Source: Candidatus Kryptoniota bacterium
GTDB taxonomy: Bacteria; Bacteroidota; Ignavibacteria; Kryptoniales; JAKASW01
Reading direction: 5' to 3'
DNA length: 64,000 bases
NCBI GenBank assembly: GCA_024641705.1
Contig: JAHECO010000012.1
Location: forward strand, 1 to 64,000
Notes under the pieces: model-generated
Databases searched by the model: none
What the model was told of the DNA's origin: nothing
The model's input: the letters and a program-made list of their open reading frames with translations, nothing else
Shown: positions 3,897 to 15,272 of the stretch, piece after piece
Numbering within the stretch: position 1 is the stretch's first letter
How the letters are laid out: each line of letters begins with the position of its first letter
Made by a program: the position numbers and the translations under genes

Positions 3897-4175
3897 GTGA
3901 AGGTTATTGGAATAACAAAACTCGATGAGTTTGCAGATAAACATGGCGATGTGCGCGGACAATTGGCATCTTGGCTTGGAGAAGCCAAAAAGGCGGAATG
4001 GCACACGCCTGCAGAAATCAAAGCACGATACGCTTCTGCAAGCTTTCTTGCTGATTATCATGTCGTCTTCAATCTGAAAGGCAAGAAATACAGGCTTGAA
4101 GTCGTAGTGGGCTACAAGAATCAAATAATATCGATAAGCAGAATCGGCACACACGCCGAGTATTCAAAGTGGTGA
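3897..4175 (+). CDS. higB: HigB-family mRNA interferase toxin
   Basis: 92 residues, usual for the HigB_toxin family (RelE-like fold, ribosome-dependent mRNA cleavage). Diagnostic features are the N-terminal KVIGITKLDEF, the centre LASWLGEAKKAEWHTPAEIKARYASASFL, and the C-terminal FNLKGKKYRLEVVVGYKNQIISISRIGTHAEY, where the basic residues and the terminal TH..Y form the active face in relatives. Start is GTG with AGAAGG about nine bases upstream. It sits ten bases before an antitoxin gene and is driven by a candidate autoregulated promoter. It is intact, so a functional toxin is likely. Confidence 0.85.
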   Translation: MKVIGITKLDEFADKHGDVRGQLASWLGEAKKAEWHTPAEIKARYASASFLADYHVVFNLKGKKYRLEVVVGYKNQIISISRIGTHAEYSKW

Positions 4176-4185
4176 ATCAGATAAA

Positions 4186-5400
4186 ATGACAGATTCTGTG
4201 AAAATGATAAAAACACGATCAGACTTGGAAAAAGCTCTTTCTGAGGTCGAAAAACTTCTGGCTCTTGACCCGGATCCAGATTCCAAAGAGGGTGAAACAC
4301 TGAAAATGCTTACTCTTCTTGTGGAGGATTACGAGAAAAGTGTTTTGTGGAAGTTTCGGCCCGATCCGATTGATGCGATAGTGTTTAGAATGGAACAGCA
4401 GAATCTTTCGCAGAGAGACCTGATTCCTTTTATCGGCAGTAGAAGCAAGGTCTCAGAAGTCCTCTCTAGGAAACGTCCCTTGACCCTATCCATGATTCGG
4501 GCTCTTCACAATGGACTTGGCATACCGGCGGAATCCCTAATCCAGGATCAGGATGATACGAAATCAAGCGACTTTAAGATCGAATGGCAGAGGTTTCCGG
4601 TAAAAGATATGGCCTCGCGTGGCTGGTTGAAGCCGTTTTCCCGTGCAACAAAAGACGACATAGAGGCGGTAAAGAAGTTTTTTGATGAATTGAAGCCAAT
4701 TCCGTTGGTTCAGGTGCTATACAGAACTTCGAATCACATGCGTTCGGCTCGGAAGATGGACCAGTATGCGCTGGCTGCTTGGACAGCAAGGGTGATAAAT
4801 GTTGCTTCTGCAAACCCGCCCAAAGCACCCTATGAAAAGGAAAGCATAGACGATGACTTCATGAAGGCGCTCGTCCGCCTGAGTGTTTTTAACGATGGCC
4901 CACTCCTCGCTTGTCGCTATCTAGAAGAACAAGGGATCTCCATAGTGATTGAAAAACATCTTCCTGGCACTTACCTAGACGGGTCCGCAATCATGATAAA
5001 GCAAGAGCATCCTATCATTGCACTCACCTTGCGGCACGATCGATTGGATAATTTTTGGTTCAGCCTGATGCACGAACTTGCGCATCTGCGCCTTCATTTG
5101 GGATCGGAGATTGATCAGTTTTATGATGATTTCGATGTTGATTATCAAGGTGATTTGCGGGAGGATGCAGCCGATGCACTGGCCAGCGAAATTCTCATCC
5201 CAAAAGATGTTTGGAAAAAGAGTCCCGCGAGCAAACTGAAAATGCCAGAGGCGGTTTCAAGCCTTGCGAAGACCCTAGGTATCCATCCTGCAATCGTGGC
5301 CGGAAGAATTAGACACGAGACCGGAGATTTTCGTATCTTGAATAATCTCGTGGGCCACAGGCAGGTAAGAACCCTCTTTGGGGAGCACGGTTGGAACTAA
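4186..5400 (+). CDS. HigA-type antitoxin fused to ImmA/IrrE-family metallopeptidase
   Basis: 404 residues. Residues 1-50 are the HigA-like N-terminus. Residues ~62-115 form an XRE helix-turn-helix (MEQQNLSQRDLIPFIGSRSKVSEVLSRKR), as in HigA partners of HigB. The C-terminal half (~200-395) is an IrrE/ImmA zinc peptidase: HELAH at 296-300 and the downstream acidic helix REDAADALASE (E326), which supplies the third zinc ligand in this family. ImmA/IrrE enzymes cleave repressors in response to stress or DNA damage. The fusion suggests an antitoxin that can cleave itself or a partner and release HigB. The next gene overlaps its stop by ten bases, implying one operon. Confidence 0.85.
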   Translation: MTDSVKMIKTRSDLEKALSEVEKLLALDPDPDSKEGETLKMLTLLVEDYEKSVLWKFRPDPIDAIVFRMEQQNLSQRDLIPFIGSRSKVSEVLSRKRPLTLSMIRALHNGLGIPAESLIQDQDDTKSSDFKIEWQRFPVKDMASRGWLKPFSRATKDDIEAVKKFFDELKPIPLVQVLYRTSNHMRSARKMDQYALAAWTARVINVASANPPKAPYEKESIDDDFMKALVRLSVFNDGPLLACRYLEEQGISIVIEKHLPGTYLDGSAIMIKQEHPIIALTLRHDRLDNFWFSLMHELAHLRLHLGSEIDQFYDDFDVDYQGDLREDAADALASEILIPKDVWKKSPASKLKMPEAVSSLAKTLGIHPAIVAGRIRHETGDFRILNNLVGHRQVRTLFGEHGWN

Positions 5401-6557
5401 GCTTTGGGCCAAATCATTATATGCCGGTGCTTCATTGGAAACCAGCGGAGGTGGGAGCACTATCCAAGCTTGCAGATACGACAAGAGAACACATAACACC
5501 GCTGCTTGAATTGTGTCCAACGATGTTCGTCCAGAAAGAGGGGATTAAACGAAAGAAGCGTGGCCCCAAAAAAGTCGAAGATATTCTCCTTTCCAGAATT
5601 GAAGAGCTGAGGCTCGCTGTCACGGGAAATCCATTCTTAATTGACCTTAGACACCTGCCGGAATCCCTAACCTGCTCAGATGGTGAACATATGTGGGATG
5701 CCCTTAGCAGAAAAGGAATCTCTCTTGGCTTAGTGGCCGTCCCCGTTACGGGTTTCTTTGGAAAAGGGAAACCCCATCAGGCAAAAATTGCGGAAATAGC
5801 CGAGAACTTCGGGAGAGGACTCGCGATCCGACTTTTCAGAAGAGATCTTGAAAGGCCGAGTCTACCCAGAGATGTTCTAACTTTGCTCGAAATCTTAAAG
5901 ACCGACATTGGACGCGCCCATCTGCTGATTGACCTCGAATTAGTCAGCGCCGACTCTCATTCGTTGGATTCTTTGATAACGAGAATTCCTCAAGTAAATG
6001 ACTGGAGAAGTGTGACGATCGTAGGGGGTTCATTTCCCCTCGATCTCCGACACCTGAAGGCAAACGACGTCTATGAACTTGACAGACATGAGTTCAAACT
6101 GTGGAACGATCATCTCTGCTCGCTGATGCAGTCTCGATACGGCAGAACACCTTCTTTTGGCGATTACACGATTCAGCATCCTTTCTACAACGAACCAGTC
6201 AAAACTCCGCATGTGAGTGCAAGCATCCGTTACTCTACGCCTGAATCTTGGACTGTCTTTCGCGGGGAGTGGATTGGAAAGAAAAGCGGTGCGGGTTGTG
6301 GCCAGTACCCGGCCGAGGCACAACTCCTTATGAAAAGACCCGAGTACGCCGGGGAAGATTTCAGCTTCGGAGATAAGTTTATAGCGGAAAAGGCCCGGAA
6401 CGGATCAGATCATCCTGGAGGTCCAGCTCAATGGTTGCTTGCCGGTATTAACCACCATATTACGATTACAGCGGAAACGATTAGAGCCATCTATGAACCA
6501 GCAGCGACAACCGAGGTTACTATTCCGGTTGCCTCAGCGGTTGCGAAGTCATCTTAG
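5391..6557 (+). CDS. Beta-family protein (phage Beta-protein-like), third gene of the higBA-IrrE operon
   Basis: 388 residues. The N-terminus NHYMPVLHWKPAEVGALSKL with RITPLLEL-like TPLLELCP matches the Beta protein family (PF14350), whose biochemical function is unknown. A central IDLRHLP, a VTIVGGSFPLDL segment and a C-terminal YCxxP-like stretch (GCGQYPAEAQLL) fit the family's TIM-barrel-like pattern. Start is TTG 5391, overlapping the previous stop. ATG 5421 is possible but would remove the conserved NHY lead-in. Beta-family genes are recurrently found beside ImmA/IrrE proteins in mobile islands, so a role in the same stress or anti-phage module is inferred. Confidence 0.75.
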   Translation: MELSFGPNHYMPVLHWKPAEVGALSKLADTTREHITPLLELCPTMFVQKEGIKRKKRGPKKVEDILLSRIEELRLAVTGNPFLIDLRHLPESLTCSDGEHMWDALSRKGISLGLVAVPVTGFFGKGKPHQAKIAEIAENFGRGLAIRLFRRDLERPSLPRDVLTLLEILKTDIGRAHLLIDLELVSADSHSLDSLITRIPQVNDWRSVTIVGGSFPLDLRHLKANDVYELDRHEFKLWNDHLCSLMQSRYGRTPSFGDYTIQHPFYNEPVKTPHVSASIRYSTPESWTVFRGEWIGKKSGAGCGQYPAEAQLLMKRPEYAGEDFSFGDKFIAEKARNGSDHPGGPAQWLLAGINHHITITAETIRAIYEPAATTEVTIPVASAVAKSS

Positions 6558-9010: not shown

Positions 9011-9255
9011 TAGGAAGATACGTGGCTGTAGCAAAACAACGTTGGATATTGTTTGATGAAGATTCTGATGTGGTTTCTATGTTCACCGAGGAGTGCGTTG
9101 CCCCCTATGGAGCCGGCGCACGAAAGAACAAGAGCATTTCGTTTGGAGGGGGCCAATAGAGGAGACGGCTTGCATAGGTCCCGCTGCCATGGGGAGTTAC
9201 GTGCTGTTACTATCGGTTGGCCGACTTTGCAGAACCTGCCCACATACCCGGAAAT

Positions 9256-9284
9256 TTGACTTTTCAGGATTGGCCATTTATATT
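9256..9284 (+). promoter_or_regulatory. sigma70-like promoter for the SDH-protease/GAF module
   Basis: TTGACT (9256-9261), a 17-bp spacer, then TATATT (9279-9284). Transcription would start near 9291, about 58 bases before the ATG at 9349. The rest of the 338-bp gap 9011-9348 shows no gene, terminator hairpin or repeat that I can support. Confidence 0.55.
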
Positions 9285-9348
9285 CGACAAGCTGCAAAAT
9301 GACTGATTTCATGATTCCAAGAATTCAACTCTAAAGTTAAGACGGCTT

Positions 9349-10239
9349 ATGCCGATAAGAATCCCAGAGAACCTAAAGCCGATTCTGAACGTTGAAGAGG
9401 AGAATGACAGCGTGTTGCAGGCCCTCGCGTTGAGAAAAAATGCAGTTCTACTGGCGCTGATTGCTCCCTATGTGCCCGAGCGTATATCTCCAACCGAGTA
9501 TGCTTCGGCATCGCTCGGTGTCTCCGAGGAGTTTGGAATTGAGACGGTAATATCTCACATACGGCAGCACACGAAATGCAAGAACCTGTATTTGGTTATA
9601 CACAGTCCGGGTGGACTTGTCCATTCTTCTTATAAGATTGCTAAGGCGCTTAGGTCTAACTTTAAGGAAATTACCGTATTCGTGCCCTATTTGGCCGCTA
9701 GCGGAGGGACGCTAATAGCACTGACCGGGAATCACATTGTTATGGGTTTGATGAGTTATCTTACCCCAATTGATCCACTTTACGGATCAATACCGCTGAA
9801 TTCGCTTCCAAGGGCATTCACCAGATTGGTGAATTATTTTGAAAAGAGGGAGAAGGACGAGGCATCATATCCGTGGATCGCTTTGACCGAGAAGATCGAT
9901 CCAATACAGCTTGAAACCTATAGTGGCGAGATTGATGCGGTCCAACGATACGCTTGTGAGATCTTGAGCCTAAGTCACCCGAGTCTATCGAAGCAAGAGG
10001 TCGAGAAGATAGCGAAGGCTCTTATATTAGAATTTGAGTCGCATTCCACCCTTATTGGGTTCAAGGATGCATCGCGGATAAACCTACCTGTGACGAACAA
10101 CGTTAGTCACCACAATGAGTGGAGAATATTGAGGGAGTGGCTAGGAAGGTACCTGTTGAAAAGTGAAAGCCAGCATTTTATCCGTTGCGTTATACCGGGT
10201 AGAAAGGCAACAAGGAACTCGAAGGGGAGCAAGAAATGA
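9349..10239 (+). CDS. SDH-family Clp-fold serine protease (SppA-like)
   Basis: 296 residues of the serine dehydrogenase proteinase family (PF01972), which has a ClpP/crotonase-like fold. The oxyanion turn is LYLVIHSPGGLVHSS (~80-93). The nucleophile elbow is FVPYLAASGGTLIALT (Ser118). The segment MSYLTPIDPLYGS contains the conserved acidic residue after it. There is no signal peptide or TM helix in this copy, so it is probably cytosolic or peripheral to the membrane. It is the first gene of a four-gene cluster, and its stop overlaps the next start as ATGA. Likely substrates are membrane or misfolded proteins, but the in vivo target is unknown. Confidence 0.85.
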   Translation: MPIRIPENLKPILNVEEENDSVLQALALRKNAVLLALIAPYVPERISPTEYASASLGVSEEFGIETVISHIRQHTKCKNLYLVIHSPGGLVHSSYKIAKALRSNFKEITVFVPYLAASGGTLIALTGNHIVMGLMSYLTPIDPLYGSIPLNSLPRAFTRLVNYFEKREKDEASYPWIALTEKIDPIQLETYSGEIDAVQRYACEILSLSHPSLSKQEVEKIAKALILEFESHSTLIGFKDASRINLPVTNNVSHHNEWRILREWLGRYLLKSESQHFIRCVIPGRKATRNSKGSKK

Positions 10240-10457
10240 AGAGAAGCAATCTCTTGAAAGATCGACGAATAGGAGACGCAATCGCATTCCAGAACGCATT
10301 TGAAACCTGGAGGAGCTTGGACTCCCGCGAAGCGTTTAAACTGTGGAGATCACTTGCCAATCGGAAGAGCAAGACTACCGTCGATAAGAGTTCAAAGGGA
10401 ACAAAGAGGCGTCGCGTTTCTCGCCCGGCCTCGAACGGATTTGGCAGCGAACGATAA
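10236..10457 (+). CDS. small basic protein coupled to the SDH protease
   Basis: 73 residues, strongly basic. The first half contains two related stretches (AFETWRSLD and AFKLWRSLA), a short tandem repeat of a W-containing helix. The tail is Ser/Arg/Lys-rich and probably disordered. The ATG overlaps the upstream TGA by four bases, the usual sign of translational coupling. No family recognised. It could be a protease adaptor or nucleic-acid-binding accessory, but that is a guess. Confidence 0.5.
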   Translation: MKRSNLLKDRRIGDAIAFQNAFETWRSLDSREAFKLWRSLANRKSKTTVDKSSKGTKRRRVSRPASNGFGSER

Positions 10458-10621
10458 TGTTTTGACTGGTTGGAGCGGTTGGGGAGCGGGGGGACGAGTG
10501 CCCCTTTTCACGAACTCACGAGCAGAATACCTGCGTTGGCCGGTGGGGAGTGGTATTTTGAATTGGTTTTCCGATTGGCGATATCTGATCTTATTTTGAA
10601 GGCCGCAATTAAGGGATTCTC

Positions 10622-11503
10622 TTGCATAAGGTTGTCTTAGAAGCGTTTGAGTCTACAAACTCGAAACGCTTCTGGTTGTTCTTACTTTCCGGGTGGGGAT
10701 CTATTGTAGCCATCCTTCTGTTTGGCAAGAACTTCGTTGGTCTCAATGTGGTTGCCTCGTGTATCTTGGGTCTCCTAATCGTCGTGGCTATATGGCTCGG
10801 TAGATTTCTATTCTTTCTCTTGAAGTACTCTTTGAAGTACTTGAACTCTAGGTACAGAGAAATAGCCTATGCCGAATCGATATTGATCCTGAAAGACGCC
10901 TTTGCTAAGGTGCATTGGCTGCGGAAGAACAGTAGCGTTACAGATAAAGATTTCAAAGAAGCCATGTTGTATCTCTGTGATCGGCTAAAAGAGATATTTG
11001 CGCGACTAACGCGTTCAACTTGCTCGGTTTCAATAAAGGTCGCGGTGAAGGGAACCGTCACGGCTATTGCAGAAGTTGCTAACCTCTCGAGAGACCAAGA
11101 ATCACGCGCTAGAGACACCCACGCCTACAAGAGCGTTCAGCATTTGATTTTCAAAAACACATGCTTTCTTCAGATTTTCACTAATTTTACAGACGGCAAG
11201 AAAGACAAATTATTCTATGTCAATAATGATATTCCAGCAGACAGAAGTTACCAGAACACGAGTCGGGAAGCATATTCAGACGGGAAGCTCCCCTATGATA
11301 GTGAAATTGTCGTGCCGTTGATTCCATTGATTAGAGACGAGGAAAACAATTATAATCTTTTGGGGTTTCTCTGTGTTGACTGTAAGGACAGAAATAAGTT
11401 TGATGGGAAGTATCATGTTGGCCTGCTCCAAGGTGTTGCAGACGGAATTTATGATCTGATGCTCCAGCGAATTGAAGCAAAAGGACGCCAGTCAAATTCT
11501 TAG
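10622..11503 (+). CDS. two-TM membrane protein with C-terminal GAF-like sensor domain
   Basis: 293 residues. Two TM helices (~18-36 and ~41-68) form a hairpin. A helical linker (~72-125) follows, then a domain with the GAF pattern: paired strands TCSVSIKVAVKG, the late strand YDSEIVVPLIPL, LLGFLCVD and a terminal helix HVGLLQGVADGIYDLM. GAF domains bind small molecules such as cyclic nucleotides or act as redox sensors. Start is TTG with AAGGG six bases upstream; no in-frame ATG is near. It lies in the SDH-protease cluster after a 164-bp gap, so it is plausibly the sensor or membrane anchor of that module. Confidence 0.65.
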   Translation: MHKVVLEAFESTNSKRFWLFLLSGWGSIVAILLFGKNFVGLNVVASCILGLLIVVAIWLGRFLFFLLKYSLKYLNSRYREIAYAESILILKDAFAKVHWLRKNSSVTDKDFKEAMLYLCDRLKEIFARLTRSTCSVSIKVAVKGTVTAIAEVANLSRDQESRARDTHAYKSVQHLIFKNTCFLQIFTNFTDGKKDKLFYVNNDIPADRSYQNTSREAYSDGKLPYDSEIVVPLIPLIRDEENNYNLLGFLCVDCKDRNKFDGKYHVGLLQGVADGIYDLMLQRIEAKGRQSNS

Positions 11504-11513
11504 GAGGTTTAGG

Positions 11514-11774
11514 ATGGCAATCGAACAGAAAAAAGAGGATGCGTTACTAGATACCCTTCCGTTCACGGTTGAGGAAGAAACGGATCACATAAAATTGGTT
11601 TCTAAGAAATCTGTGAGTACCGGTACAAGTGGTCCACGTTCATCGACGTCCAAAGGAGTCACCGTAGAGGTTCATCTGTTTGACAGGGGAGACCTGGACA
11701 GATTAAACGCCATTAATGTGGATCCGCCCAAGAAGGTGCGGTTGCTTGACAGAATCATAAGGCGCATCAAATAG
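11514..11774 (+). CDS. small protein of unknown function, last gene of the SDH/GAF cluster
   Basis: 86 residues. ATG 11514 is set by a strong AGGAGG at 11502-11507 with a six-base gap; a longer reading from 11472 has no such site. An acidic/basic N-terminus is followed by a Ser/Thr/Gly-rich middle, a strand GVTVEVHLFDRGDLDRLNAI and a basic end (LLDRIIRRIK). The ribosome site overlaps the stop of the GAF gene, so the two are co-translated. No known family recognised. Confidence 0.6.
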   Translation: MAIEQKKEDALLDTLPFTVEEETDHIKLVSKKSVSTGTSGPRSSTSKGVTVEVHLFDRGDLDRLNAINVDPPKKVRLLDRIIRRIK

Positions 11775-12085
11775 GTCGGTGGCCGTCGATACCCGAATCT
11801 GTTGTGCTGTTATCGTATTCACGTTAATTCTTCCGTTGTAATCTACTTACAGTGCGTCGCTCTTACCGGGGGCAAGCGGTGATGATTTCGCCGTGGCTCC
11901 GTATCGAAATTTCCCATTGTACAAGATGTCGCTTTTAGTCATCCGAAGCCAATCCTTCCCGTGACGGATAATATTGAATCGGCTAAAACAAGGCGATGCG
12001 CAAACCCATGCACCGCTCGACCGGATTTTGGTGAACGTAGCTCAAAGAGAAGGACGCCTCTTGTTGCCCGCATCAAGCGGAAGAA

Positions 12086-12175
12086 TAAATGCCCGATCTT
12101 GACGACCGATGGAGGATCTGTTTTAGGTACGTGGATGGCGATGCTTATGATGTCGGCATCGAAGATTATCATTGA
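12086..12175 (+). pseudogene. decayed HigB toxin, 3' remnant
   Basis: The frame ending at TGA 12173-12175 reads DDRWRICFRYVDGDAYDVGIEDYH, the well-conserved C-terminus of RelE-like HigB toxins (WRI.F.W..G.AYDVEI.DYH). An in-frame TAA lies at 12086-12088. The expected preceding residues (RIN) occur in another frame at 12080-12090, consistent with a small insertion. Upstream to 11775 no convincing toxin N-terminus is seen. The remnant ends 12 bases before higA, the normal higBA spacing. The remaining part of the 413-bp gap 11775-12187 shows nothing I can support. Confidence 0.6.
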
Positions 12176-12187
12176 GGAGTATACAAC

Positions 12188-13087: not shown

Positions 13088-13465
13088 ATGCAATCAATTA
13101 AGCTTCTTATTCAGGGTGCCCTTCCGGCTGATGAGGTTCGCCGCCTTCTTAGCGGGCCGGACAGTGGCATCGAACTCGCTGAGGGCTTCCGGGAAGAAAG
13201 CGGCCTGAACGTTTCTTCCCGTGAGCCGCGGCGCTCTGCTGTCGGCGATGTTCTCGTCCTTGCGGGCATCATTGTCAACATAGCACAGCTGTCGTTAACG
13301 ATCTATCGAATTTACCAGGGGCAGAAGAAGAAATCGGAAGGGGGAAGCAAACCTCAACCCGTTCCTGTACAGATCATCACGGCTAAGGGCACACTGATTG
13401 TTCCTGTTGCCACGCTGGCCGAAATTGAGGAGTCGATTAAGCAACATGTCGTCGATGACAAGTAA
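13088..13465 (+). CDS. EACC1-like effector-associated small membrane protein
   Basis: 125 residues. The pattern is a short N-terminal strand (SIKLLIQG), a helix (ADEVRRLLSG), a linker, a single TM-like helix at ~53-76 (VGDVLVLAGIIVNIAQLSLTIYRIY), then a basic loop and two strands reading VQIITAKGTLIVPVATLAEIEESI. This matches the layout of 'effector-associated constant component 1' (EACC1), a partner protein in NTP-dependent conflict systems. The family call is by pattern only. Its last codons overlap the start of the downstream HExxH protein, so the two are translationally coupled. Confidence 0.55.
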   Translation: MQSIKLLIQGALPADEVRRLLSGPDSGIELAEGFREESGLNVSSREPRRSAVGDVLVLAGIIVNIAQLSLTIYRIYQGQKKKSEGGSKPQPVPVQIITAKGTLIVPVATLAEIEESIKQHVVDDK

Positions 13466-15272
13466 CGACCTGTACGGGCAATTCCGCGAGGTACTCTGCA
13501 CATCGGGACGCGAGCGGCAGCGTGATCCGGTTATGGGGGAATTTGATCCGATGAACATGATATTGAGACTCAGGTGGGATATAGGAGCGCTGGCCAGCGT
13601 CGGGCCGGAGGCTATCGCAAACGCGCGGTTGACGGATTGGCGGACTCTGTTCGCCCGGTACGACCCGGCAAAGGAGTATATGACGTTTCTCCCGGATGCA
13701 TTTCCCGACGAGATATCTGCCGACCTTCTGCACAGTCTGCCTTTGATCGTCGCGAGTCCCGGGACGATGAACGAGCCCAAGGCATATGCTGCTTACTTTC
13801 ATGAAATGCTGCATTGGTGGCAGCACGTCGGCACAACATCTGGACTCCTTTACGGTCTGGCGATCCCTGCGGTTTGCCAGCAAAACTACGAGCACATCAG
13901 AGCCGCCGTCCGGCAGGCTCGCCCTTTGAGAAAACCCCTCTACCGTTACTCAATGGTCCGGGCGGGATCGCATGCCGCGGACCTCGAGATGAATGTTAAT
14001 ACAGCCGTGAACAACTGGTTCGATGTTGAGATCGGTGCGTTCCTCTTGAGCAGTCCTGAACGTGCGGCTAAACTTCAGGCAAAGCCGGCTGTGCTGTTCT
14101 TTGACTGTCTGGGGCATTCCATTGAGATGCTGCTCACTTATACGGTTGGCAATCTTGCCGCCTGTTTAGATGATCGCCGACGCCCTGTCCTGCCGGACAC
14201 GCGAGGATGGGACGCGGGGTTCAACAGCTTGCGCGACAAAGGAGAGCCGGGCTTCCAGCACGGTGAGCCGCTCCGCTTGCCTCCGTTCGGCATGCAAAAG
14301 ATCCAGGAAGGACAGGCTCACCTGCTCGAATTGCAGTACTTGCATCTGGTCAGCGACGGCAGACTCTCCTGGCGCGACTTTCATAAGGACGGATTGTTAG
14401 GGGATGAGTACATGCAGGCATTGGTATACTTCTGCGAGGCCACGGGGCTTGAATTTCCCTCACGCCCAACAGGCGGTGAGGCAAACCTGTTCCTCATCCT
14501 CTGTGATATCTCGCTTAACCCGAGTGCCGGATACCCGGACGAGATGGTTAACTACCGCGGATTACTCTTCGAGATCAGCCCGGGCATTCGGTTCCTGCAG
14601 GGATGCGAGATTCTTGGCCATCAACACGATCTTTGCCGGAGGCTGTGCGGTGAGGTCAGGCCATTAGACGGCGGCGCATACGACAAGGTTTCGCAAGCGA
14701 TATGCAGCGTCATGGGTGTGAAGACGCCCCGCGAGACCGCCCGGACAATCGTCGAGCTTGCAGCACGGATGCCGTCAGTCGCAGCCCTCAAGAAGGATTT
14801 CACGGGAAGCTGCAAGTTCGAACCCAACAGCGCGGGGAGCATGCCGATACGCTACACGTTCCTCAAACATTTACTTCTCATGGAGGACAAGTCGATGCAT
14901 CCGGAGATTTTCTGCTGGCCGGCGTGGCATTTCGCACTCCTGGGTCGTAAGTCGCGAGAGAGTTTTGATTCTGCAAAAATGTTGCTCCGGCGTCATGCAC
15001 CACCGTTCGTCTCATATGGTATGAAGAGCCCCGTGAGATACACTCCGCAAGACGGCGCTGATCCTGCCGGACTGGAACGCGTGGTCGCTGCTTATTTCAA
15101 ATGGATGGTCATCTACGATCTCTATACGCAACTGATCGCGAGAGACGGGAAGTTCTGCTTCAACTACGCCTGGCTCGATTCTACCAAAGACCAGGAGTGG
15201 TATCGCGGGTGGGCGGCAAAGAACTTCAGCGACCTCATCGGCTGTGATATTGGTGCGATTGAGACGTGGTGA
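13446..15272 (+). CDS. predicted HExxH (gluzincin-like) metallopeptidase coupled to the EACC1-like gene
   Basis: 608 residues from ATG 13446; ATG 13455 is an alternative, and both lie inside the upstream gene. HEMLH at 119-123, in a hydrophobic helix (AAYFHEMLHWWQHVG), is a zinc-binding HExxH. A downstream helix, IQEGQAHLLELQYL (E288), fits the third ligand EGxA of gluzincins. No signal peptide or TM helix is evident. I do not recognise a named family. The ~320-residue C-terminal part is Cys/Trp-rich with no familiar motif. Given the tight coupling to an EACC1-like protein, a toxic or signalling peptidase in a biological conflict system is inferred. Confidence 0.6.
   Translation: MSSMTSNDLYGQFREVLCTSGRERQRDPVMGEFDPMNMILRLRWDIGALASVGPEAIANARLTDWRTLFARYDPAKEYMTFLPDAFPDEISADLLHSLPLIVASPGTMNEPKAYAAYFHEMLHWWQHVGTTSGLLYGLAIPAVCQQNYEHIRAAVRQARPLRKPLYRYSMVRAGSHAADLEMNVNTAVNNWFDVEIGAFLLSSPERAAKLQAKPAVLFFDCLGHSIEMLLTYTVGNLAACLDDRRRPVLPDTRGWDAGFNSLRDKGEPGFQHGEPLRLPPFGMQKIQEGQAHLLELQYLHLVSDGRLSWRDFHKDGLLGDEYMQALVYFCEATGLEFPSRPTGGEANLFLILCDISLNPSAGYPDEMVNYRGLLFEISPGIRFLQGCEILGHQHDLCRRLCGEVRPLDGGAYDKVSQAICSVMGVKTPRETARTIVELAARMPSVAALKKDFTGSCKFEPNSAGSMPIRYTFLKHLLLMEDKSMHPEIFCWPAWHFALLGRKSRESFDSAKMLLRRHAPPFVSYGMKSPVRYTPQDGADPAGLERVVAAYFKWMVIYDLYTQLIARDGKFCFNYAWLDSTKDQEWYRGWAAKNFSDLIGCDIGAIETW

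What the first reader, a model, noticed from the sequence alone, without database searches (positions are those of the whole stretch)
9349..11774. Clp-fold SDH serine protease, two small proteins and a TM-GAF sensor in one cluster
Four genes lie behind one promoter-like site (TTGACT-17-TATATT). The first two overlap, and the last two are coupled by a strong AGGAGG spanning the stop. A membrane GAF-type sensor with a Clp-fold protease suggests a ligand-triggered proteolysis module. It lies between toxin modules and I do not recognise it as a described system.
Basis: inference. Interest (0 to 1): 0.66.

Follow-up and report, generated by a model that had tools for sequence, protein, structure and literature searches.

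The report
Two separate gene pairs, defence hotspot
The four genes are real, but comparison with other genomes shows they are two independent two-gene units (a protease with a small partner, and a membrane sensor protein with a small partner) sitting where sister species keep DNA-cutting defence systems; the sensor pair is an undescribed family that most resembles a known membrane toxin, so it could be a new kind of bacterial self-defence switch.

Summary
The observation largely holds. 9349-10239 is a soluble PF01972 (SDH/ClpP-fold) protease with Ser118, Asp142 and His232 kept. 10622-11503 is a two-helix membrane protein with a GAF fold, shown by AlphaFold plus Foldseek, because no family model hits it. 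The strong AGGAGG before the last gene is real. The promoter-like site is within chance.

The single "ligand-triggered proteolysis module" is not supported. None of the 11 other TM-GAF loci I found (Bacteroidota, Chlorobiaceae, Desulfuromonas, Azospirillum, Planctomycetota, Oscillospiraceae, an archaeal MAG, two phage contigs) has an SDH protease nearby, and none of 35 SDH loci has a TM-GAF. What is kept is TM-GAF plus a 58-93 aa gene directly behind it. Soluble SDH proteases separately tend to carry their own small neighbour.

The block fills an interval that in two sister species holds BsuBI/PstI (and SacI-like) restriction systems, beside a complete PD-Lambda-2, so it is defence-hotspot cargo.

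Best reading: two unlinked defence-type pairs. TM-GAF plus small protein works like a toxin-antitoxin or abortive-infection membrane effector, closest in architecture to the validated GAF membrane toxin toxFtsL, but with a different partner. Function is inferred, not shown.

The parts
9256..9284 (+). sigma-70-like site TTGACT-17-TATATT, 65 bp before gene 1
   Evidence: present, 10 of 12 matches, but the number of such sites is within chance for the region
9349..10239 (+). gene 1: soluble SDH-family (ClpP-fold) serine protease, 296 aa; Ser118, Asp142, His232
   Evidence: PF01972 2e-19; best PHROG phrog_11747 2e-29; S/D/H invariant in the 22-sequence alignment
10236..10457 (+). gene 2: 73-aa basic small protein (net charge +13), overlaps the gene 1 stop by ATGA
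   Evidence: no relatives found; provisional as a gene
10458..10621 (.). 164-bp non-coding gap between the two gene pairs
   Evidence: no unusual RNA fold (z -0.18), no terminator-like site
10622..11503 (+). gene 3: 2TM-GAF membrane protein, 293 aa (TM about residues 17-57, long helix 41-102, GAF about 108-292)
   Evidence: 11 relatives
11502..11507 (+). AGGAGG Shine-Dalgarno sequence overlapping the gene 3 stop, 6 nt before the gene 4 ATG
11514..11774 (+). gene 4: 86-aa small partner of the TM-GAF protein
   Evidence: relative behind the closest TM-GAF (Chitinophaga L052, pairwise E 5.6e-5); a small gene in this position in 11 of 12 loci
9011..12187 (.). cargo interval of a defence hotspot (between the GH31 gene and HigA/PGPGW); restriction systems here in sister species
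   Evidence: GC 43-50% for the cargo genes against about 54-56% around them

Best explanation
The block is two independent two-gene units carried side by side in a defence hotspot, not one proteolysis module. Unit A is an SDH/ClpP-fold serine protease (probably active: Ser118-Asp142-His232) with an overlapping small basic protein that I take to be its dedicated regulator or substrate. Unit B is a 2TM-GAF membrane protein with a small downstream protein. I infer that unit B works as a toxin-antitoxin or abortive-infection pair: the GAF domain senses a small ligand or is held by the small partner, and the signal passes down the long helix to the membrane helices, stopping growth by disturbing the membrane or the division machinery, as the GAF membrane toxin toxFtsL does. 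Shown: the genes, folds, conserved pairing, hotspot location, and separateness of the units in other genomes. Inferred: toxicity, ligand, the small proteins' role, any phage defence.
For: Separateness: an SDH profile over 13 TM-GAF fetched stretches (187 kb) finds nothing but a weak match to an ordinary phage ClpP, and a TM-GAF profile over 35 SDH loci finds nothing. In genomes with a TM-GAF, the PF01972 matches lie on other contigs or are long SppA-like frames. Pairing: the mechanical rule puts a 50-100 aa ORF at -25..+60 behind the TM-GAF gene in 9 of 12 loci, and 2 more have one if an internal start is used; the background is 11 of 78 long ORFs. Leave-one-out profiles rank the adjacent small ORF first among 100-130 ORFs in 4 of 6 loci. 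GAF fold; invariant pocket-type residues Y210, P232, F249, C251, D253. Defence setting: BsuBI/PstI and SacI-like restriction genes occupy the same interval in sister species. Other TM-GAF pairs lie beside type III R-M, an NsnA/PD-T4-2_A-like DUF262 gene, a type I methylase, Phd/RelE and a conjugative element, and on phage contigs. Precedent: toxFtsL, a 281-aa membrane GAF toxin (PMC10440598).
Against: No functional data. Both pairs lie in one low-GC block in this genome and could be co-transcribed. The small partners fall into three groups whose common descent I could not show, and L053 has no same-strand partner. toxFtsL's sequence could not be reached, so descent from it is untested, and its antitoxin (Panacea) is absent here. 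Two TM-GAF loci (Desulfuromonas L055, Planctomycetota L058) have no obvious defence neighbours.
Confidence: 0.5

Rival explanations
1. One reading: one four-gene module in which the membrane GAF protein senses a ligand and switches on the Clp-fold protease.
For: All four genes are co-oriented within 2.4 kb, in one low-GC block that replaces other cargo of a hotspot.
Against: SDH and TM-GAF are never neighbours elsewhere. There is a 164-bp gap with no shared signal. The promoter is within chance.
Confidence: 0.08
2. TM-GAF is a membrane effector gated by a nucleotide or other signal made elsewhere in the cell (like Cap1, Cam1, TM-SAVED or PycTM) and the small protein is an accessory.
For: 2TM plus cytosolic ligand-domain architecture. 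The TM part of relative L046 matches the TM part of CBASS SAVED_TM (2.7e-5) and that of L061 weakly matches ThsA (0.028). GAF domains commonly bind cyclic nucleotides (established knowledge). Cap1 shows that 2TM plus a sensor domain can open a pore (PMC12642688).
Against: No cyclase or nucleotidyltransferase turned up among the neighbours scanned. The TM matches could be hydrophobic composition.
Confidence: 0.2
3. TM-GAF is a redox or methionine-sulfoxide type sensor or enzyme related to free Met-R-sulfoxide reductase, with a housekeeping stress role.
For: The best solved fold match is an fRMsr, and the profile finds an fRMsr in genome G401 at E 0.003 (sequence read). C251 is invariant.
Against: The cysteines of the fRMsr GVCG and HIACD stretches have no counterpart, and the first D of its LDID motif is C here. 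Patchy distribution in defence islands is unlike a housekeeping enzyme.
Confidence: 0.08
4. Decayed or chance assembly: unrelated hotspot cargo with no present function.
For: The neighbouring HigB is only a C-terminal remnant; gene 2 has no relatives.
Against: SDH catalytic residues, the GAF fold and a strong Shine-Dalgarno sequence are intact; the closest TM-GAF pair (42% identity) is kept as a pair.
Confidence: 0.12

Closest known systems
toxFtsL-D9 : PanA toxin-antitoxin of Gelidibacter mesophilus (NetFlax; PMC10440598)
   Same: about 280-aa membrane protein with a helical region followed by a GAF domain, encoded as one half of a two-gene unit
   Different: its antitoxin is a Panacea-domain protein; here the partner is a much smaller unrelated protein; sequence homology could not be tested
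2TM ligand-gated defence effectors (Cap1, Cam1, Csx23, CBASS TM-SAVED, Pycsar PycTM)
   Same: membrane helices plus a cytosolic ligand-binding domain; distant match of one relative's TM region to SAVED_TM
   Different: GAF instead of CARF, SAVED or CNB; no signal synthase found next to it; a conserved small partner gene
SDH family Clp-fold serine proteinases (PF01972 / NF047768)
   Same: fold and Ser-Asp-His residues; small neighbouring genes are frequent
   Different: no N-terminal membrane helix and no rhomboid neighbour as in the housekeeping type; well below the NF047768 equivalog cut-off (89.9 against 250 bits)
PD-Lambda-2 (PMC9519451)
   Same: same island, 2.8 kb upstream; a complete three-gene copy at 3897-6557
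   Different: a separate system; no shared components with the four genes

Membership tests
SDH/ClpP-fold proteases (PF01972) | Pfam score over the curated cut-off | tested here: met
   70.1 against 31.3 bits
SDH/ClpP-fold proteases (PF01972) | conserved Ser, Asp, His | tested here: met
   S118, D142, H232 invariant in 22 sequences
NF047768 SDH equivalog | score over the equivalog cut-off | tested here: not met
   89.9 against 250 bits
GAF domain | GAF fold | tested here: met
   AlphaFold model and Foldseek to many GAF structures
GAF domain | match to a Pfam GAF profile | tested here: not met
   no GAF family among the listed matches of the 12 members (25 of 31 families shown)
free Met-R-sulfoxide reductase | conserved cysteines (GVCG and HIACD stretches of E. 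coli MsrC) | tested here: not met
   alignment to MsrC
toxFtsL:PanA | membrane helices, helical stretch and GAF in about 280 aa | tested here: met
   293 aa; paper
toxFtsL:PanA | adjacent Panacea (PF13274) antitoxin | tested here: not met
   PF13274 in this genome only on contig C53; gene 4 has no Pfam match
toxFtsL:PanA | sequence homology to toxFtsL | not testable with these tools
   sequence not reached; 30 Panacea loci held no TM-GAF relative
toxFtsL:PanA | toxicity neutralised by the partner | not testable with these tools
   needs an experiment
CBASS/Pycsar-type effector | adjacent nucleotide cyclase or nucleotidyltransferase | tested here: inconclusive
   none among the neighbours scanned, but not every neighbour was scanned and a distant synthase is possible
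PD-Lambda-2 (neighbour) | A, B and C genes in order | tested here: met
   A 1e-37, B 3e-152, C 1e-44

The most novel reading that the evidence does not exclude
TM-GAF plus small protein is an undescribed stand-alone toxin-antitoxin or abortive-infection family, spread across bacterial phyla and also carried by phages, in which a GAF domain gates a membrane toxin and a tiny dedicated protein holds it in check; soluble SDH protease plus small protein would be a second undescribed pair of the same kind.
Probability: 0.4. Interest if true: 0.7.

Novelty: new variant of a known kind. Interest (0 to 1): 0.5.

Why it matters
No family model in Pfam, NCBIfam, PHROGs or PADLOC describes the TM-GAF pair, yet it recurs across distant phyla and on phage contigs, often next to restriction and toxin genes. 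If it is a defence pair, it gives the single published GAF membrane toxin (toxFtsL) a family of analogues with a different partner, and makes the question of what the GAF domain senses directly testable. It also shows that PF01972 proteases recur as accessory genes in prophages and defence regions, a subject on which the papers searched say almost nothing.

Tried and rejected
Intergenic terminator or structured RNA between genes 2 and 3: none. Close relatives of gene 1 in genome and viral contigs: none by pattern scan. DpnI/Dam-replacing (Pfam 0.005) and mREase_II (PADLOC 0.006) hits to gene 3: weak, cover only the GAF strand/helix region, contradicted by the GAF fold. fRMsr enzyme: cysteines missing. 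Link to toxFtsL by sequence: weak profile matches in 395 genomes looked like noise where read, except one true fRMsr, and 30 Panacea loci held no relative. Structure of the small partner family: low confidence (pLDDT 61, pTM 0.29), only a hairpin plus helix suggested. A minus-strand ORF in L053 (8603-8776) looks like the small partner by eye but does not score among the top ORFs. G155 hit to TM-GAF: stop-broken, rejected.

Full report
OBSERVATION. The four ORFs are present. Gene 1 (9349-10239) and gene 2 (10236-10457) overlap by ATGA. Genes 3 (10622-11503) and 4 (11514-11774) are coupled by AGGAGG at 11502-11507, which overlaps the gene 3 stop. Between the pairs lie 164 bp without a terminator-like site or unusual fold. 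The promoter-like site at 9256-9284 is real, but the region holds 6 such sites against 4.2 +/- 2.0 in shuffles, so it is not evidence of one operon.

GENE 1. PF01972 at 2e-19; the best PHROG is phrog_11747, unknown function, 2e-29. In an alignment of 22 SDH-type proteins, S118, D142 and H232 are invariant, so the enzyme is probably active. It lacks the N-terminal membrane helix and the rhomboid neighbour seen in the housekeeping type, and scores far below the NCBI equivalog cut-off. The nearest sequences with solved structures are the 1510-N/NfeD protease and ClpP. Relatives are often accessory genes: in 47 of 5426 E. coli genomes the gene seen on an E. coli plasmid-like prophage record (L006) recurs, and in the genome read it lies on the opposite strand between antiterminator Q and the holin; on Methylocystis and Rhizobium plasmids a relative ends multiubiquitin-E2-E1-DUF6527 operons. 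Several soluble relatives have a 53-83 aa ORF overlapping or just behind them (L006, L032, L033, L034, L036, L037, L040, L041), with similar small proteins within subfamilies. Gene 2 fits this pattern, but I found no relative of it.

GENE 3. No Pfam, NCBIfam or PHROGs family. I gathered 11 relatives from whole genomes, named genome contigs, viral contigs and plasmids: Chlorobiaceae (three), Chitinophaga (42% identity), a Woesearchaeota MAG, Desulfuromonas, Oscillospiraceae, a Planctomycetota MAG, Azospirillum and two phage contigs, one of 170 kb. Eleven of the 12 have two predicted N-terminal TM segments (the Chitinophaga one shows a single strong segment). AlphaFold on ten of them gives long helices 2-34 and 41-102, then an alpha/beta domain whose best PDB matches are GAF domains. 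Viral structure matches include phage membrane and GAF proteins of similar length. Invariant or near-invariant residues R157, F182, Y210, N212, Y225, P232, F249, C251, D253 suggest a shared ligand pocket. It is not a free-Met-sulfoxide reductase: the cysteines are missing.

PAIRING. A small same-strand ORF follows the TM-GAF gene in 11 of 12 loci: 9 by the mechanical start rule, and the window and L042 with an internal start; L053 lacks one. Only 11 of 78 other long ORFs have such a follower. In 4 of 6 loci a leave-one-out profile ranks the adjacent ORF first of 100-130. Gene 4 matches the Chitinophaga partner (27% identity, pairwise E 5.6e-5). The two phage partners resemble each other. Common descent of all partners is not shown.

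SEPARATENESS. No SDH protease lies in the 13 fetched TM-GAF stretches (187 kb), apart from a weak match to an ordinary phage ClpP 4.4 kb from the phage TM-GAF gene, and no TM-GAF lies in 35 SDH loci, though most of those span only about 1.5 kb each side. In genomes with a TM-GAF, PF01972 matches lie on other contigs.

SETTING. The GH31 gene upstream belongs to the genus background (78-69% identical copies in sister species). In two sister species the interval between GH31 and HigA/PGPGW holds BsuBI/PstI restriction-modification, in one of them also a SacI-like nuclease and a D12 methylase. In the window the same interval holds the four genes, at lower GC. A complete PD-Lambda-2 lies just upstream. 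TM-GAF pairs elsewhere lie by type III and type I R-M genes, an NsnA/PD-T4-2_A-like gene, Phd/RelE, a DNA methylase and a conjugative element. Location therefore supports a defence role for both pairs but does not prove it.

MECHANISM. Most likely two independent units. For unit B the best precedent is toxFtsL of G. mesophilus: 281 aa, membrane, helical plus GAF, toxic in E. coli with filamentation, FtsZ delocalisation and late lysis, neutralised by PanA (PMC10440598). Architecture agrees; the partner differs; sequence homology is untested. A ligand-gated pore of the Cap1 or TM-SAVED sort is the main rival. Ligand, toxicity and partner role are inference. For unit A, a protease restrained by or acting on its small partner is inference from arrangement only.

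NOVELTY. A new variant of a known kind (toxin-antitoxin or abortive-infection membrane effectors), with no existing family model found in the four libraries searched. The literature searches found no description of either pair, but they cover only open-licence papers.

Noticed in passing
3897-6557: Complete PD-Lambda-2 defence system (A 3897-4175, B 4186-5400, C 5391-6557).
   Followed up: yes
L083 (G008) and L084 (G003), interval between GH31 and HigA/PGPGW: Same hotspot carries BsuBI/PstI R-M in sister species; the G008 nuclease gene is split into two ORFs.
   Followed up: partly
12089-12175: C-terminal remnant of a HigB-like toxin gene in front of an intact HigA gene.
   Followed up: partly
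L007, L008, L010 (Methylocystis and Rhizobium plasmids): SDH-family protease as last gene of multiubiquitin-E2-ThiF-DUF6527 operons.
   Followed up: no
L006, L070 (E. coli prophages): SDH protease gene, found in 47 of 5426 E. coli genomes; in the two records read it lies on the opposite strand between antiterminator Q and holin.
   Followed up: partly
L060:7725-8887 (170-kb phage contig) and L059: Phage-borne TM-GAF gene with its own small partner.
   Followed up: partly
13088-15272: Two overlapping ORFs (125 and 624 aa) without any Pfam or NCBIfam match.
   Followed up: no
G000:C32, L002:1345-2370: A second SDH-family protease in the same genome, downstream of an ATPase-like gene.
   Followed up: no
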